Source of the DNA: Gilvimarinus algae
Lineage (GTDB): Bacteria > Pseudomonadota > Gammaproteobacteria > Pseudomonadales > Cellvibrionaceae
Length of the DNA stretch: 64,000 nt
Direction of reading: 5' to 3'
Assembly: GCF_030518215.1 (NCBI RefSeq)
Contig: NZ_JAULRT010000062.1
Span: forward strand, 248,001 to 312,000
In this document: positions 5,331-30,694 of the stretch, in pieces
Numbering within the stretch: the stretch's first letter is position 1
How the letters are laid out: every line of letters begins with the position of its first letter
The notes under the pieces: generated by a model
The model's database searches: none
What the model saw: only the letters and a program-made list of their open reading frames with translations
What the model was told of the DNA's origin: nothing
Position numbers and translations under genes: made by a program

Positions 5331-5388
5331 AAATCTATCGACGCGAGAACGGCATCAAACCAATTGCACTATCAGTTATATCGTTCAC

Positions 5389-5721
5389 TATCGCAGCACA
5401 GCGAGGGTGACAATAAAATCGATCAGTACGCTCGCTTTTGTTGCCAGGTTTCAGCGGCACAGGGAAGTGCCGCCGCCGGGCTTGCCCCGGACGCGAGTCC
5501 TCGCTGAGCCAGATATTCCGCGCAATATCGCAGTGCAGCGAGGGTGACAATAAAACCGATCAGTACGCTCGCTTTTGTTGCCAGGTTTCAGCGGCACAGG
5601 GAAGTGCCGCCGCCGGGCTTGCCCCGGACGCGAGTCCTCGCTAAGCCAGATATTCCGTGCAATATCGCAGTGCAGCGAGGGTGACAATAAAATCGATCAG
5701 GACGATCGCTTTTATTGCCAG
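5389..5721. repeat. 137-bp tandem repeat, about 2.4 copies
   Basis: Two full copies (5389-5525, 5526-5662) and a partial third (5663-5721), at an exact period of 137 bp with very few differences. Each unit holds several stem-loops: GGCAC/GTGCC, CCGGG/CCCGG, and a long imperfect palindrome starting at TGACAATAAAA. The array fills the 409-bp gap between the outer-membrane protein gene and the TTG-start gene at 5740. Short reading frames in it are by-products of the repeat. It is not a CRISPR: unit too long, no spacers. Confidence 0.95.
5682..5720 (+). promoter_or_regulatory. Long imperfect hairpin just before an RBS
   Basis: Arms 5682-5698 and 5704-5720 pair with two mismatches in 17 (TGACAATAAAATCGATC against GATCGCTTTTATTGCCA) around a 5-nt loop. 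It lies 7 nt before the AGGAGG of the next gene. The same structure recurs in the two upstream repeat units. A role in controlling the downstream gene is possible but unproven. Confidence 0.5.
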
Positions 5722-25268: not shown

Positions 25269-25819
25269 GAAAGAGCGATGCGGCAGTTTTCTTCGGCGAG
25301 GCTTTGCGTCTCGCGGGCAATGTCCACCTCTGAAGGCAGGGTTTGAAACGCCTGCCGGTAGTCGGCTTTCATTTTTTTGCGGATCTTGCCCCAGATAAAC
25401 CGTTTGACTTCCACATCTTCTTCCAGAATCAAGCCCGGTACCGCAACGGGCTTTCGGGTTTGTTCGTCAATGGCCACCATGGTGAAGTAAGAAGTGTTGG
25501 TGTGCTTGGTGATGCCGTGCTGAAAATCCTCGGAGTACACCTTTATCCCCACCTCCATGGATGAGCGCCCCACATAATTCACTGAGGCCATCAGCGTTAC
25601 CAGCTCGCCCACCTCTACGGGGTTAACGAAATTCACCGAGTCCACCGAGGCGGTCACGCAATAGGCGCGTGAATGGCTGGCGGCGGTGGTGTAGGCAATT
25701 TTATCCATCAGTGACAAGATAATCCCGCCATGCACTTTACCGCCAAAGTTGGAGTAGGAGGGAATCATCAGCTCTTTGAGAATATTCTGCGAGGACTTTA
25801 CCGTGCGAAACTCGGTCAT
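25265..25819 (-). CDS. Acyl-CoA thioesterase, hotdog fold (YciA/ACOT type)
   Basis: 184 aa, single hotdog domain (about residues 5-125). Features: SNFGGKVHGGIILSLMDKIAYTTA with the substrate-side Asp, then ASVDSVNFVNPVEVGELVTLMASVNYVGRSSMEVGIKVY. That layout is the cytosolic acyl-CoA hydrolase family. C-terminal helical tail (VDIARETQSLAEENCRIALS) of unknown role. Hydrolyses acyl-CoA to free acid and CoA; chain length cannot be predicted. Confidence 0.88.
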   Translation of the reverse strand: MTEFRTVKSSQNILKELMIPSYSNFGGKVHGGIILSLMDKIAYTTAASHSRAYCVTASVDSVNFVNPVEVGELVTLMASVNYVGRSSMEVGIKVYSEDFQHGITKHTNTSYFTMVAIDEQTRKPVAVPGLILEEDVEVKRFIWGKIRKKMKADYRQAFQTLPSEVDIARETQSLAEENCRIALS

Positions 25820-25935
25820 GGTTGGCGATCACTGTATGGGGTTGGTGTTATTGAGGCACTAGCGCCGTCAATGCCGCGGCGCGTTAACGCCATAGTACCG
25901 TTATTTTTACACGCCTTGAAACCCTGGCCGCAGAA

Positions 25936-27561
25936 TCAGTGTACCGGGGTGTCTTGCCGGCCCATGCGCTTGCGCACCATTTTCGCGTGCCACATTGCGG
26001 GCACGATCACCAATACCGACATGACACCCAGCACCCACAAGTGATGCTGCTCCAGCGCGCCTAAATTCACCAGTCCGGCGGCCTGCTCGTTGTTGATCAG
26101 CCGGGCAAAGGCCAGCGGGCCAATGGCCGCCTCCCGCGCCACCGCGAAACCACCGCTAAAGGCGGTGTCCCAGCCGAGGGCGGAGAGTGAGCCATAGGCT
26201 TTGTAGGCGATACTGGAGGCGCCAAAACCAATAAAGCCTACGGCCAGTGTGCCGAGGGCAATCAGGCCAAAACCCAGTGCGCCAATGCTGATGAAACCGA
26301 CCGAGACAATCCCCACGCTCACGGGCGCAACGGCTAAACCGCCCCAGGCAAAGAGCAAACCATAGGCTCTGTCGCCACCGGCAATCCACGCCAGCGCCGG
26401 CTTGTCGCCCGCCTCGGGCATGCCGAGTTTGAAGTGCAGCAACGCAATACCGCCCAGCGTCCAGCGGCTTTTGATTTCGCGCCGTGTTGAGCCGGGCGCA
26501 TCGGACTCGTGCGTAAAGGCCTCAGGCAGACGCGCGCGCTCCTGGGCCCTGAGCTTGGGTTGTCTTTTTAACATCCATACCAGCAACCACAGGTAGGTCG
26601 CACCAAAGGCCAGCACCAGCAGTTGGGAGCTTAAAGCGTAAGCCGCGGCCATCTCAGGCGCGCCCTTTGCCAGGTGCTCCAGCAAAAACATGCCCGCTAC
26701 AAACACACCGGCAACCGCGAAAAACAGCGAAACAATCACGATGGCTGCGCGCTTTTCTTTGGCTGTGCGGGACTGGTCAAGGCTCGCTCTGACACTAAAG
26801 AAGGAGCCAATCACCCCGGAGAAGGACGCCAGCAGCGTCACCAGGCTCGCCCACTTAAACACGCTGCCCGCGTGCGAGGCACCGATCCCCAAGGCTGCAG
26901 CCTGGGCTTTGGGGGCGCCAATACCACTGATGGCCGTCAACACCGAGAGCGTAAAGGCGGCGCCGGGCTTGCTCTTTTCAAGCGCGTTTTCAACAAAGTC
27001 CATCATGGCTTTTTGCAGGATTTTTCGCCCGCGCGAGAGGCGCTGTTTAACCGCGTCTTCGCTTAGGTCCAGCTCGTTGGCCACATGCTCTACCGAGCGT
27101 TGCTCGCGGTAAAACAAAATGAGCGGCTCGCGATAGGTATCCGGTAATTTTTCCAGAGCCTGCCACAGCAGTGTCTGCTCTTGTTGCTGAATCAGCGTGT
27201 CATCAATGCTCGCCTGCTCACTGGCGGGCTCTGTGGTTTCATCGTGCTCGCCCAGTGGTTGCCGGGCGGCAGAGCGCCGGTGGCGGCTGACTTTAAACCG
27301 CAGTATCCCGCACAGCCAGGCTTTGAGTTTTTCCGGGTCGCTCAGGGTATCGAGTTTGCGCCAGGCCTCCACAAACGCCTCTTGGGCAATGTCTTCACTG
27401 TGCTTGAAATCGCCCACTGACGAGTAGGCCAGCGAACACAGCAGGCTTTGGTAGCGACTGACGACCTCGCCAAAGGCATCGCGGTCGCCCCCCAGACAAG
27501 CCATCACGAGAGTGGCATCGCTGGAGTCTTTATAGGGCAGGGTCTTTTTGAAAAAGCTCAT
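25936..27561 (-). CDS. ECF-type sigma factor fused to membrane and Gly-rich repeat domain
   Basis: 541 aa from ATG 27561; an in-frame start at 27639 would extend it over its own promoter. Sigma region 2 about 20-85 (ATLVMACLGGDRDAFGEVV, HSEDIAQEAFVEAWRKL), region 4 about 120-180 (ALEKLPDTYREPLILFYREQ, then ELDLSEDAVKQRLSRGRKIL). The rest is membrane-like: helices at about 210-235 (FKWASLVTLLASFSGVIGSFF), 250-275 and 285-310, then a soluble link, and a Gly-rich segment of regular small repeats (VGIVSVGFISIGALGFGLIAL). A last helix precedes a basic tail. Such fused sigma factors are known, mostly from other phyla. No separate anti-sigma gene is adjacent, so the membrane part may serve that role (inference). 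It shares a promoter motif with the divergent gene. Confidence 0.85.
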   Translation of the reverse strand: MSFFKKTLPYKDSSDATLVMACLGGDRDAFGEVVSRYQSLLCSLAYSSVGDFKHSEDIAQEAFVEAWRKLDTLSDPEKLKAWLCGILRFKVSRHRRSAARQPLGEHDETTEPASEQASIDDTLIQQQEQTLLWQALEKLPDTYREPLILFYREQRSVEHVANELDLSEDAVKQRLSRGRKILQKAMMDFVENALEKSKPGAAFTLSVLTAISGIGAPKAQAAALGIGASHAGSVFKWASLVTLLASFSGVIGSFFSVRASLDQSRTAKEKRAAIVIVSLFFAVAGVFVAGMFLLEHLAKGAPEMAAAYALSSQLLVLAFGATYLWLLVWMLKRQPKLRAQERARLPEAFTHESDAPGSTRREIKSRWTLGGIALLHFKLGMPEAGDKPALAWIAGGDRAYGLLFAWGGLAVAPVSVGIVSVGFISIGALGFGLIALGTLAVGFIGFGASSIAYKAYGSLSALGWDTAFSGGFAVAREAAIGPLAFARLINNEQAAGLVNLGALEQHHLWVLGVMSVLVIVPAMWHAKMVRKRMGRQDTPVH

Positions 27562-27628
27562 AGGGTCCATTTCCGGCTGAAGTCGATGTAAACCACTTAT
27601 CGGTCTGGCAATAACAATTACCACGTGA

Positions 27629-27661
27629 ATAAGTGCCACTTCAGGGCCATGAGGTGACAGG
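27629..27661 (-). promoter_or_regulatory. Sigma-gene promoter motif (self-regulated candidate)
   Basis: Read on the minus strand: CCTGTCACCT, 13 nt, TGGCACTTAT, about 68 nt before the sigma factor ATG. Identical in both boxes and in spacing to the motif on the plus strand at 27776. TGTCAC is a known type of ECF -35 element. An ECF promoter recognised by the encoded sigma factor is inferred. Confidence 0.7.
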
Positions 27662-27775
27662 TTTTCTTATTTTTTATCGCATCCGGCTCTGAGATCCACT
27701 GTAGGGGCCAGCTCGGGGGCGATTGATGCATCTGCAGGGCTAATCATTCCCCGAATCAGAAAAAACTGCAAATTT

Positions 27776-27808
27776 CCTGTCACCTTTTCCTCGCGGCTTG
27801 GCACTTAT
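27776..27808 (+). promoter_or_regulatory. Matching promoter motif for the CIA30-like gene
   Basis: CCTGTCACCT, 13 nt, TGGCACTTAT, 60 nt before the ATG at 27869. Mirror copy of the motif at 27629-27661. The spacers share little sequence, so the boxes look selected rather than copied. The 307-bp divergent gap 27562-27868 holds nothing else I recognise. Confidence 0.7.
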
Positions 27809-27868
27809 GCCCAAACACCCAGGCACAAGCCTGAACCTTAATGGCCTTAAATGACGAGGAGATACACC

Positions 27869-28468
27869 ATGAAAGCACGCACTCTTACACCAGTAGCACC
27901 TATAAAGTCACTGGCTCTGGCGGCATTGCTGACGCTGTCTGCCACCGCTCTTGCCGAGCCTTTAAAACCGCTGGTGGATGATTTTGCCACCGCCGGCAAT
28001 AACAGCCTGGGGCTGCAGCGCCAGTACATCAGCGACAGCGTCGCCGGTGGTGCCAGCACCATGAACCACACATTGGCCGATGGCGTCTTGACCGTATCGG
28101 GCGAGATCGTACCGGCGCGTGGCCAACTGGGTTGGACCTCCTGCGCTCTGCCGCTGAATGCCCAGGGTCTGGCTCAGAACGCCGCGGCCTACCAGGGTGT
28201 GCTGCTGCGCATCAAAGTAAGCGAGGGCAATGTCTCGCTCACGGTCAACAGCACGGAGGTGACCAACTTTGATTACCATGCCGCGCCTCTGGCGGTGCCC
28301 GCCGATGGCCAGTTCCACGAGGTAAAAGTCCCATTTTCCAGTCTGCAGCGCGCCTGGTCAGAGCAGATTCCCCTGAACCCCAGCACCTTAAACGGCTTGA
28401 GCATTGTCGCCTACAGCCCGCAAGCGGCGCCCTTTGAATATCAACTCGATGAAGTGCGCTTTTACTGA
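27869..28468 (+). CDS. Exported CIA30-like (complex I intermediate-associated protein 30) domain protein
   Basis: 199 aa from ATG 27869 (GAGGAG 7 nt upstream); an in-frame ATG at 27851 lacks an SD. Signal peptide ends TALA|EP. The mature part is a jelly-roll fold: LVDDFATAGNNSLGLQRQYI at the start, VLLRIKVSEGNVSLTVNSTEV, and VPADGQFHEVKVPFSSLQRA ... LDEVRFY at the end, all typical of CIA30/NDUFAF1-like domains. Bacterial members are often found near ECF regulators; function unclear. Probably controlled by the divergent sigma factor. Confidence 0.75.
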   Translation: MKARTLTPVAPIKSLALAALLTLSATALAEPLKPLVDDFATAGNNSLGLQRQYISDSVAGGASTMNHTLADGVLTVSGEIVPARGQLGWTSCALPLNAQGLAQNAAAYQGVLLRIKVSEGNVSLTVNSTEVTNFDYHAAPLAVPADGQFHEVKVPFSSLQRAWSEQIPLNPSTLNGLSIVAYSPQAAPFEYQLDEVRFY

Positions 28469-28475
28469 TTAATAA

Positions 28476-28506
28476 GCGCCGCGGTAGCGGCGCCATACTT
28501 TTTTAT
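28476..28506 (+). terminator. Rho-independent terminator after the CIA30-like gene
   Basis: GCGCCG/CGGCGC stem with 6-nt loop, then CATACTTTTTTATTT. Stem plus T-run. Confidence 0.7.
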
Positions 28507-28523
28507 TTGAGTGAGCCAATCCC

Positions 28524-29756
28524 ATGACATCAATGACACACACAAACCAGCGGCTGGACTATCTGGACGCGGTAAGGGCTTTTGCGCTTCTGTTGGGCAT
28601 CGTTTTTCACGCGAGCCTGTCATTTTTGCCCGTGTACATCGGCTGGGCGGTGATGGATGTGTCCACCAGCAATCTCGTCGCCCATTTTATGCTGGTGAGC
28701 CACTCTTTCCGGATGGAGTTGTTTTTTCTGGTGGCCGGCTTTTTCAGCCATATGACTTTTCACCGCGCCGGGGCTGGGCCCTTCGTGCGCTCGCGCCTGC
28801 TGCGTATCGCCGTGCCTTTTGGGGTGGGCTGGTTTTTGCTCCGGCCGCTGTTGATATCCGGCTGGGTGATGGGTATGCAAAGCCTGCGCGGCGAGGTGGA
28901 TTTTTCGGCAGCTATGCTACAAAGCTGGGTGTCGTTTATGGAATCGATGGGTAACCCTTTTACCGGAACCCACTTGTGGTTTCTGTACTATCTGCTGGTG
29001 ATTACGGCCCTGGTATTGGCGATTCGCTCGCTGGTGGGTTTGCTGGGGGCTTGGGGGCGGTCCGTCACTCGCGCGGCGGATGCAGCCGCTGCCTGGCTCT
29101 GTCACTCACCTGCCGGCATGGTGGTACTAGCGTTACCGACGGCCGCCGCTTTATGGTTTATGAACCACTGGGGCATGGATACGCCGGATAGATCCCTGGT
29201 GCCACAGCTTCCGGTGCTTTTGATTTACACCGGGTGCTTTGGCTTTGGCTGGTTGCTGCAGCGCCAGAGCCACTTAATGGAAAGTTTCAGTCGCCTAACG
29301 CCCGCGCGCCTGCTGATGACCTTGCTGGCGGTGATCGCCGCCGTCTATCTCAGTGGTTTTCAGGCCAGAACCGGCCACCCGCAATACGTCACCTTTAAAC
29401 TGGCGTTTGTGCTCAGCTACGCACTGATGATGTGGTCTCTCGTGGCGCTGACCATTGGTGTGTTTCGCCGATGCTTAAATCGGCCGCGCGAGTGGGTGCG
29501 CTATCTGGCGGATGCGTCTTACTGGCTGTATTTGATTCACTTGCCCATCGTGGTCTGGCTGCAAATTGCCTTTGCCGAGGTGCCATGGCATTGGGCCGTT
29601 AAGCTCGCTTTAATTTCGGGTATTACCGTGGCGGTGTCCCTCTTGCTGTACGATCTGCTGATCAGGCAGACGTTTATCGGCACTGTGCTCAATGGGCGGC
29701 GTAAGCAGAGAGCCTTGCGGCTGCGACGCAACCCCGCACTGGCAGCGCCGCTTTAG
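28524..29756 (+). CDS. Acyltransferase family 3 membrane protein (OpgC-like)
   Basis: 410 aa with about ten helices. Begins RLDYLDAVRAFALLLGIVFHASLSF, containing the family Arg and catalytic His; MELFFLVAGFFSHM follows, the usual FFLISGF-type motif. Acyltransferase_3 proteins O-acylate periplasmic glucans, LPS or exopolysaccharides; the RxxxLDxxR and H pattern fits OpgC/OafA-type enzymes. Its stop overlaps the convergent coiled-coil gene by 4 nt. Confidence 0.8.
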   Translation: MTSMTHTNQRLDYLDAVRAFALLLGIVFHASLSFLPVYIGWAVMDVSTSNLVAHFMLVSHSFRMELFFLVAGFFSHMTFHRAGAGPFVRSRLLRIAVPFGVGWFLLRPLLISGWVMGMQSLRGEVDFSAAMLQSWVSFMESMGNPFTGTHLWFLYYLLVITALVLAIRSLVGLLGAWGRSVTRAADAAAAWLCHSPAGMVVLALPTAAALWFMNHWGMDTPDRSLVPQLPVLLIYTGCFGFGWLLQRQSHLMESFSRLTPARLLMTLLAVIAAVYLSGFQARTGHPQYVTFKLAFVLSYALMMWSLVALTIGVFRRCLNRPREWVRYLADASYWLYLIHLPIVVWLQIAFAEVPWHWAVKLALISGITVAVSLLLYDLLIRQTFIGTVLNGRRKQRALRLRRNPALAAPL

Positions 29757-30694
29757 GAGTCGGCGCGCGCCGACCACCGTCCATTTTTATCTCGGCATAC
29801 ATTAAAGTCATTGGATGTCGATTCGCTGCGGTTATCGGGTTCAAAAGCAACCACCCGAATTTGGCGGCATCCTTGTTGACCTTTGATTTGCTCAGCGAGC
29901 AATTCAACTTCTCCGACAAAGTCGCTGCCTGGCATTTGGAACCTTTGCTTGTCGCCGACGTGAGCGGAGCTGACAAAGTCCTGCAGCGTTGATTTCAGGT
30001 AATCGCTCTGCTCTTGTGTCAGGGGCTTGCCCGATGGTGTGATCACCTTGGTGATGTCGGACATGAGGTTGAAAGGCGCTTTGATAATGCCGGTAAAAAA
30101 GCCGGACACAGCGCTTTCGCCGGCTTCGCTGGCGGTTTGGTCAATGTCGGCAATAATGGCTTCCACCCGGCCAAGGGTCGGGTCAATGGTTGCGCGAATG
30201 GCTTGTGATTCTGCCAAAAACTGCGGTGCCAGCGCTCGGTAGGCCTCCAGCTCTACGCGGTAGGCTTCAAGCTCCGCGAGTATGGCGGGCAGGTCCTGGC
30301 GTACTCTTTCTACTTGTTCGCGCACCAGGGCGACCTCCTCGCGCACCGCGGCGGATTCGGCCAGCAGTGTGCGGCTGTCGGTGCGCACATTGTCCACGGT
30401 GGTGACGACACTATCGACCCGTTCAAGCACGCCGGGCAGCTGTTCAATAATCGCCTGGCTTTGTTCCACCACCGCATTGGTTTGCAAGCGAATGGCTTTT
30501 GATTCCTGCAGTATGTCGGGTATTAAGTCCACCACCGGCGTGACCGCCCCGGAAATCTCCGTGACGCTATCGGCGGTTTGCGGCAGTTGCTCGGCAATAC
30601 GCGTCAGCGAAAAACCAAAGTAAAAAATAGCGCCGGCCAGCAGGCTGACCGCCAGGGCTATCGCAAATTGCCCAATCACTCTTGCTTGAGACAT
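29753..30694 (-). CDS. Membrane-anchored coiled-coil protein with 17 kDa-antigen-like C-terminus
   Basis: 313 aa. N-terminal helix (IGQFAIALAVSLLAGAIFYFGF), then an amphipathic coiled coil about residues 35-190 (REEVALVREQVERVRQDLPA). The C-terminal 70 residues have two cysteines (GCRQIRVVAFEPD, NDFNVCRDKNGRW) and resemble the small domain of surface antigens of the 17 kDa type. Exported part would be periplasmic. Function unknown. Confidence 0.55.
   Translation of the reverse strand: MSQARVIGQFAIALAVSLLAGAIFYFGFSLTRIAEQLPQTADSVTEISGAVTPVVDLIPDILQESKAIRLQTNAVVEQSQAIIEQLPGVLERVDSVVTTVDNVRTDSRTLLAESAAVREEVALVREQVERVRQDLPAILAELEAYRVELEAYRALAPQFLAESQAIRATIDPTLGRVEAIIADIDQTASEAGESAVSGFFTGIIKAPFNLMSDITKVITPSGKPLTQEQSDYLKSTLQDFVSSAHVGDKQRFQMPGSDFVGEVELLAEQIKGQQGCRQIRVVAFEPDNRSESTSNDFNVCRDKNGRWSARADS

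What the first reader, a model, noticed from the sequence alone, without database searches (positions are those of the whole stretch)
27562..27868. Identical mirror-image promoter motifs between a membrane-fused sigma factor gene and a CIA30-like gene
Seen directly: CCTGTCACCT-N13-TGGCACTTAT occurs once on each strand in this 307-bp gap, both boxes identical over 10 bases each with the same spacer length and unrelated spacer sequence, 60 and 68 nt before the two start codons. TGTCAC-type -35 elements are known for some ECF sigma factors. Inference: the sigma factor drives its own gene and the exported CIA30-like protein through this promoter. A linked regulator and target pair with no separate anti-sigma gene.
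Basis: partly seen in the sequence, partly recalled or inferred. Interest (0 to 1): 0.78.

Follow-up and report, generated by a model that had tools for sequence, protein, structure and literature searches.

The report
Membrane sigma factor's paired outward promoters
In a marine bacterium, a gene switch (a sigma factor) built together with its own membrane domain very probably turns on only itself and one neighbouring operon, for an exported protein with a sugar-binding-type fold and a sugar-acylating enzyme, through two matching promoters placed back to back.

Summary
CCTGTCACCT-N13-TGGCACTTAT occurs once per strand; its 18-base core occurs only at these two places in the genome. The genus is Gilvimarinus (Cellvibrionaceae). 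The same sigma factor with the same membrane C-terminus is in 18 of 144 genomes of the family; 17 of those 18, and none of the other 126, carry the divergent CIA30-like gene. Adding one ortholog from another family, 37 of 37 upstream regions (19 sigma, 18 divergent) hold the motif at 15 or more of 18 positions; 740 shuffles and 125 other upstreams reach at most 14. Exact matches occur in 15 of 144 genomes, all sigma-positive. In the out-of-family locus both sites remain although the divergent gene is unrelated to CIA30. Best reading: an autoregulated ECF sigma factor whose detectable regulon is itself plus one operon (CIA30-like protein, MdoC-like acyltransferase), with the fused membrane domain in place of an anti-sigma factor. 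Recognition of the motif by this sigma is strongly supported, not shown; the anti-sigma role is inferred. It works like ECF41 but is not ECF41: a new variant of a known kind.

The parts
27630..27659 (-). promoter-like site of the sigma gene: TGTCACCT-N14-GGCACTTA
27778..27807 (+). promoter-like site of the CIA30-like gene: TGTCACCT-N14-GGCACTTA
27660..27777 (.). 118 nt between the two back-to-back sites; A-rich just upstream of the -35-like boxes as in the relatives
25936..27561 (-). ECF-type sigma factor fused to a membrane domain, 541 aa (start by alignment; in-frame ATG also at 27570)
   Evidence: Pfam Sigma70_r2 1.2e-13 and Sigma70_r4_2 1.2e-11; orthologs
25936..26976 (-). C-terminal part, residues 196-541: hydrophobic segments near 236-257, 272-293, 309-332 and 506-524, and a Gly-rich hydrophobic repeat near 400-452; no Pfam family
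   Evidence: hydropathy averaged over 18 orthologs; Pfam at E up to 10 gave one hit, DUF6338 at E 0.59, far below its cut-off
27869..28468 (+). CIA30-like protein, 199 aa, with a signal-peptide-like N-terminus (by eye)
   Evidence: PF08547 7.8e-10; model resembles NDUFAF1/CIA30 and CBM11
28476..28493 (+). terminator-like hairpin just behind the CIA30-like gene
   Evidence: 8 such sites found in the stretch, 5.5 expected, so weak; folds at -18.1 kcal/mol (no shuffle control)
28524..29756 (+). acyltransferase-3 membrane protein, closest curated family MdoC (OpgC), 410 aa; probable second gene of the operon
   Evidence: PF01757 9.3e-32; NCBIfam MdoC 156 bits, below its 338-bit cut-off; next to the CIA30-like gene in 17 of 17 loci

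Best explanation
A self-amplifying, one-protein ECF switch with a tiny regulon. The N-terminal sigma2-sigma4 part, with RNA polymerase, recognises TGTCACCTTT (-35-like) and GGCACTTA (-10-like) 14 nt apart as counted from TGTCACCT. One copy drives the sigma gene and a back-to-back copy drives the divergent operon for an exported CIA30-like protein and an MdoC/OpgC-like acyltransferase. The polytopic C-terminus holds the sigma part inactive at the inner membrane until an envelope signal changes its fold or has it cut. Shown here: the two sites, their conservation and orientation before both genes, their co-occurrence with this sigma factor, and the near absence of other sites. Inferred: recognition by this very sigma factor (about 0.85), the anti-sigma role of the membrane part (about 0.55), proteolysis rather than a change of fold as trigger (open), and a role in binding and acylating a periplasmic or surface glucan (about 0.45).
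For: Exact pair and only pair in the genome. Footprint: the pattern was fixed on 7 loci, then met in the upstreams of 11 further family loci and one out-of-family locus: 37 of 37 upstreams at 15-18 of 18 positions, 14-nt spacing in 35 and 13-nt in 2; shuffles (740) and 125 other upstreams of the same loci reach at most 14. Boxes carry about 1.4-2.0 bits per position (the two outer T of the first box 1.4 and 0.9), spacer positions 0.0-0.4 (all 35 family sites). Exact TGTCACCT-N14-GGCACTTA in 15 of 144 family genomes, all among the 18 sigma-positive; reversed control 0 of 144. CIA30-like gene in 17 of 144, all sigma-positive. G013 lacks the CIA30-like gene yet keeps the site before sigma. In G847, another family, both sites persist while the divergent genes are a 39-aa exported-looking peptide ORF and a PF00144 serine hydrolase; a 53% identical hydrolase gene overlaps the 3' end of the sigma gene in G065. 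Site ends 25-32 nt before the sigma ATG in 15 of 19 genes, as a promoter would. Regulon: up to 2 mismatches in 18 genomes gave 39 sites, 33 at the locus and 6 elsewhere; the reversed control gave 4. Scan for sigma-70-type promoters in 25500-30000: 0.
Against: No transcript or binding data. The co-occurrence of motif and sigma is partly built in, since the motif lies in the locus itself, and no family genome has the CIA30-like gene without the sigma to serve as a control. At 2 mismatches the motif is not specific: 33 of 38 genomes match and the reversed control is similar; in the own genome up to 3 mismatches gives 32 sites against 20 for the control. One off-locus site has 1 mismatch of 16 in the own genome (C16:793515), with a weaker counterpart in sigma-less G007; not followed. 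Two exact off-locus sites, in G013 and G075, lie antisense inside long ORFs; I take them as chance, though the one in G075 matches all 18 positions. The two boxes share G.CAC.T at a 21-nt step, which would also fit a tandem operator. The -10-like box is not the usual CGTC. The structure model of the sigma protein failed (mean pLDDT 37), so the anti-sigma contact is untested.
Confidence: 0.78

Rival explanations
1. The motif is the operator of another transcription factor (an activator or repressor binding a direct repeat two helical turns apart) that controls both genes; the sigma factor reads some other promoter.
For: TGTCACCT and .GGCACTT share G.CAC.T at a 21-nt step (by eye). Shared operators between divergent genes are common (recalled).
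Against: Each site is asymmetric and points at its own gene in 37 of 37 cases. The boxes differ in length and in conserved letters. Two sites tolerate a 13-nt spacer. In 15 of 19 sigma genes the motif ends 25-32 nt before the ATG, leaving little room for a promoter downstream; no other conserved block is seen upstream except A-rich sequence, and no sigma-70-like promoter is found. A repressor operator lying on an unseen promoter is not excluded.
Confidence: 0.1
2. The site is a promoter, but of another ECF sigma factor of the cell; the fused sigma factor is only one of its targets.
For: The protein search gave 7 matches in the own genome and several in most relatives, so other ECF-type sigma factors are present.
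Against: Exact sites are absent from all 126 sigma-less family genomes, many of which hold other ECF factors (38 genomes seen). Autoregulation is usual for ECFs (PMC8103513, passages). The site follows the sigma gene when the target is missing (G013) or different (G847).
Confidence: 0.07
3. The membrane C-terminus is not an anti-sigma device but a passenger or anchor; the sigma part is always active at the membrane, or its level is set only by transcription.
For: No zinc anti-sigma motif (HxxxCxxC, recalled) in 18 of 18 proteins, no Pfam family. The Gly-repeat part also occurs outside this protein, alone or behind a zinc-ribbon-like stretch, so it need not be about sigma factors.
Against: The C-terminus stays fused in all 19 orthologs found, though the profile search used the C-terminus itself and so could not see orthologs without it. 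An autoregulated sigma factor without any brake would be expected to lock on (inference). Fused membrane brakes are described for ECF243, ECF48, ECF52 and ECF53 (PMC8999054, section 3.5).
Confidence: 0.3

Closest known systems
ECF41 sigma factors (Ecf41Bli of Bacillus licheniformis, R. sphaeroides; PMC3426412, passages and section 25 seen)
   Same: ECF factor with a fused C-terminal domain and no anti-sigma gene; -35 box beginning TGTCAC; geometry alike (TGTCACA-n16-CGTC against TGTCACC-N15-GGCA); the motif before both the sigma and the linked gene; linked gene or operon as the only detectable target.
   Different: ECF41 has a soluble SnoaL-like domain and a COE-type target; here a polytopic membrane domain, a CIA30-like/acyltransferase operon, a longer -35 box (TGTCACCTTT) and GGCACTTA instead of CGTC. 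Divergent pairs are the minority in ECF41 and hold in 18 of 18 loci with a divergent site here.
ECFs with fused membrane anti-sigma parts: ECF48, ECF52 (SCO4117), ECF53, and IutY of ECF243 (PMC8999054, section 3.5 seen)
   Same: Sigma domain and membrane part in one polypeptide; the membrane part expected to hold sigma back until released.
   Different: [quoted passage not shown] here there are at least four hydrophobic segments and a Gly-rich repeat, no HxxxCxxC motif and no matching Pfam family.
MdoC/OpgC succinyltransferase of osmoregulated periplasmic glucans (PMC4726272, listing and start of abstract only)
   Same: The second operon gene is an acyltransferase-3 protein whose best curated family is MdoC.
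   Different: Score 156 bits, below the 338-bit cut-off of the MdoC family; substrate unknown.

Membership tests
ECF sigma factor | sigma2 and sigma4 domains joined by a short linker | tested here: met
   Pfam Sigma70_r2 at 37-103 and Sigma70_r4_2 at 134-184 of the 544-aa reading; closest solved chain SigW, E 2.1e-22
ECF sigma factor | bipartite promoter before its own gene (autoregulation) | tested here: met
   motif before 19 of 19 sigma genes; recognition itself not tested
ECF41 | C-terminal SnoaL-like domain | tested here: not met
   no SnoaL family among Pfam hits of the whole protein at E 0.001 or of its C-terminus at E up to 10
ECF41 | TGTCACA -35 and CGTC -10, 16 +/- 1 nt apart | tested here: not met
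   TGTCACC and GGCA, 15 nt apart: same geometry and six of seven -35 letters, other -10 (ECF41 values from PMC3426412)
ECF41 | linked COE (carboxymuconolactone decarboxylase, oxidoreductase, epimerase) gene | tested here: not met
   neighbours are CIA30 and acyltransferase-3
ECF48/52/53-type fused anti-sigma | zinc-finger anti-sigma domain (HxxxCxxC; motif recalled) | tested here: not met
   0 of 18 full-length proteins
ECF48/52/53-type fused anti-sigma | transmembrane part C-terminal of the sigma domain | tested here: met
   hydropathy averaged over 18 orthologs; no topology predictor was run
A named ECF group of the 2021 classification | group profile match and synteny | not testable with these tools
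   the classification paper is not held and its group profiles are in none of the libraries
CIA30 (PF08547) | profile match above the curated cut-off, and fold | tested here: met
   39.5 bits against 24; Foldseek 7zkq_A E 3.5e-08, CBM11 1v0a E 9.4e-07
MdoC/OpgC | equivalog-level profile match | tested here: not met
   156.1 bits against 338; PF01757 met

The most novel reading that the evidence does not exclude
An undescribed ECF group: a one-protein transmembrane transcription switch in which a polytopic domain with a Gly-rich repeat, a module that also occurs alone and behind a zinc-ribbon-like stretch in other bacteria, senses the envelope within the membrane and directly gates the sigma domain. 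It moves as a cassette with its sole target operon, which binds and acylates a periplasmic glucan, and the target can be swapped (serine hydrolase in G847) while the promoter pair stays.
Probability: 0.35. Interest if true: 0.7.

Novelty: new variant of a known kind. Interest (0 to 1): 0.52.

Why it matters
It gives a clean, almost self-contained sigma/promoter pair (19 orthologs, 37 sites) with a distinct -35/-10 signature, and a membrane-fused sigma factor whose brake, if it is one, is not the known zinc anti-sigma domain. That makes two things directly testable: how a polytopic membrane domain can control a sigma factor in cis, and what bacterial CIA30-like proteins do, since here one is tied by regulation to a glucan-type acyltransferase. 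The pair could also serve as an orthogonal promoter system in the laboratory.

Tried and rejected
Wider regulon: 6 off-locus sites in 18 genomes against 4 in the reversed control, not above background; the exact ones in G013 and G075 lie antisense in a giant adhesin-like ORF and in an ORF that looks like a cytochrome bd subunit (naming by eye). Structure of the sigma protein: AlphaFold2 with 3 sequences failed, so no fold search was made with it. Sequence search of solved structures with the 18-row profile matched only the sigma part, up to residue 198; the CIA30-like profile matched none at E 0.1. Distant relatives: class sample 3 of 369 including the own genome, two partial; order sample 5 of 390, of which two known, one new full-length (G847), two partial; family of G847 1 of 22. 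Acyltransferase as a separate transcript because of the hairpin at 28476: not decided. In one search, 9 of 16 usable gaps behind the CIA30-like gene fold below -13 kcal/mol and 7 do not; the seventeenth (L035) was dropped because the stretch I gave overlaps the acyltransferase ORF, and no shuffles were made. Mantel correlation of sigma and CIA30 distances, r 0.78, 0 of 9999 permutations: fits shared inheritance, does not tell vertical from horizontal. In one search the start used for the L137 sigma gene was a few bases off the ATG (seen); its distance of 30 is only approximate, the match is not affected. Literature: in the held library found no description of this group; most subscription papers are not held.

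Full report
WHAT IS THERE. In the whole 4.2-Mb genome TGTCACCT-N(12-14)-TGGCACTTAT has these 2 matches only, and 0 for the pattern read backwards. With up to 3 mismatches of a 16-base form the genome has 32 sites against 20 in the reversed control, and apart from the pair only one has fewer than 3 mismatches.

THE GENES. The minus-strand gene (25936-27561) has sigma-70 region 2 and region 4 domains followed by a 346-residue C-terminus. Averaged over 18 orthologs, this has hydrophobic segments near residues 236-257, 272-293, 309-332 and 506-524, and a Gly-rich hydrophobic repeat near 400-452; Pfam gives no family for it. The plus-strand gene (27869-28468) is a CIA30-domain protein with a signal-peptide-like start, seen by eye. 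Its model (mean pLDDT 79) resembles complex I assembly factor CIA30/NDUFAF1 and carbohydrate-binding module 11. The next gene (28524-29756) is an acyltransferase-3 protein, nearest to MdoC/OpgC but under that family's cut-off.

RELATIVES. Two named relatives are Gilvimarinus; their contig lengths equal those of G005 C1 and G006 C6, which the genome tool lists as the window's genus. Gilvimarinus is in Cellvibrionaceae. Of 38 relatives, 7 including the own genome have a full-length ortholog. With a C-terminal profile 18 of 144 family genomes have it, scattered: 6 of 8 in genus g1, 5 of 21 in g2, 1 of 48 in g4, 2 of 8 in g43 (genus sizes counted). Outside the family one full-length ortholog appeared, G847, in an order sample of 390, and none more among 22 genomes of its own family. 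The CIA30-like gene is in 17 of 144 family genomes, all of them sigma-positive. In these 17 loci it lies divergent to the sigma gene with the acyltransferase next to it (the acyltransferase recognised by eye outside the window).

FOOTPRINT. I fixed the pattern on the first 7 loci and then looked at 11 further family loci and at G847. All 37 upstreams (19 sigma, 17 CIA30-like, 1 other) hold TGTCACCTTT-N-GGCACTTA at 15-18 of 18 positions, 35 with the 14-nt and 2 with a 13-nt spacing; 740 shuffles of these upstreams and 125 upstreams of other ORFs in the same loci reach 14 at most, with one control at 14 and one at 13. The boxes carry about 1.4-2.0 bits per position, except the last T of the first box (0.9), and the spacer 0.0-0.4, so the boxes are kept by selection, not by recent common descent. 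The exact 16-base form is found in 15 of 144 family genomes, all sigma-positive, at 22 places of which 20 are the locus; the reversed control is 0. Three sigma-positive genomes (G006, G062, G072) have only inexact copies.

WHO READS IT. Three facts tie the motif to this sigma factor rather than to the neighbouring gene. G013 has the sigma gene without the CIA30-like gene and keeps the site before sigma. G847 keeps both back-to-back sites, but its divergent genes are a 39-aa exported-looking ORF and a PF00144 serine hydrolase. A 53% identical hydrolase gene overlaps the end of the sigma gene in G065, so this hydrolase is linked to the sigma factor in two families and in two arrangements. The site ends 25-32 nt before the sigma ATG in 15 of 19 genes, which suits a promoter better than an activator site. 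This is still indirect: the motif sits in the locus, so its co-occurrence with the sigma gene is partly built in, and no transcript was seen.

REGULON. With up to 2 mismatches of the 18-base form, 18 sigma-positive genomes show 39 sites: 33 at the locus, 6 elsewhere; the reversed control shows 4. So the detectable regulon is the locus itself. The same was found for ECF41, by promoter motif and expression analysis (PMC3426412, section 25 and passages).

MECHANISM. Most likely the sigma part, held at the membrane by its own C-terminus, is set free or re-shaped by an envelope signal and then transcribes its own gene and the CIA30-acyltransferase operon, a positive loop. Fused membrane brakes are known for IutY (ECF243), where proteolysis releases the sigma part, and are predicted for ECF48, ECF52 and ECF53 (PMC8999054, section 3.5). 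The present C-terminus lacks the HxxxCxxC motif of zinc anti-sigma domains in 18 of 18 proteins (motif recalled) and has more hydrophobic segments. Its Gly-repeat part also occurs as a separate 170-aa protein (G266) and behind a zinc-ribbon-like stretch (G534), so it looks like a mobile module. A CBM11-like exported protein next to an OpgC-like acyltransferase suggests handling of a periplasmic or surface glucan; this is inference.

NOVELTY. ECF autoregulation, TGTCAC -35 boxes, fused regulatory domains and linked single targets are all known separately. The combination with this membrane domain, promoter signature and target operon was not found in the held literature, but the main ECF classification paper is not held, so the group may already bear a number there. 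I file it as a new variant of a known kind.

Noticed in passing
L183:4103-5232 (-); L130:1823-2866 (-): A PF00144 serine-hydrolase lipoprotein-like gene is linked to the fused sigma gene in two families: behind the divergent promoter site in G847, and overlapping the 3' end of the sigma gene in G065; the two proteins are 53% identical.
   Followed up: partly
window 28476-28493: Terminator-like hairpin between the CIA30-like and acyltransferase genes; stable folds also occur behind the CIA30-like gene in several relatives, which hints at uneven expression in the operon (no shuffle control).
   Followed up: partly
L144:2690-3202 (-); L184:3341-3877 (+): The Gly-repeat part of the C-terminus occurs elsewhere as a stand-alone 170-aa protein and behind a zinc-ribbon-like stretch; the stand-alone one has no Pfam family above cut-off.
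   Followed up: partly
L143:4836-4865 (+), genome G075: A full 18-of-18 match of the motif lies antisense inside a cytochrome bd subunit-like ORF, far from the sigma locus; by letter count this would be rare by chance, but no fitting gene start was seen.
   Followed up: partly
G000:C16:793515-793544 (-): A site with one mismatch of 16 in the own genome, with a weaker counterpart in a sigma-less congener (G007); context not read.
   Followed up: no
window 5376-5690 (-): Three near-identical stretches beginning TGTCACCCTCGCTG, 137 nt apart, seen while listing TGTCACC words: a tandem repeat unrelated to the promoter.
   Followed up: no
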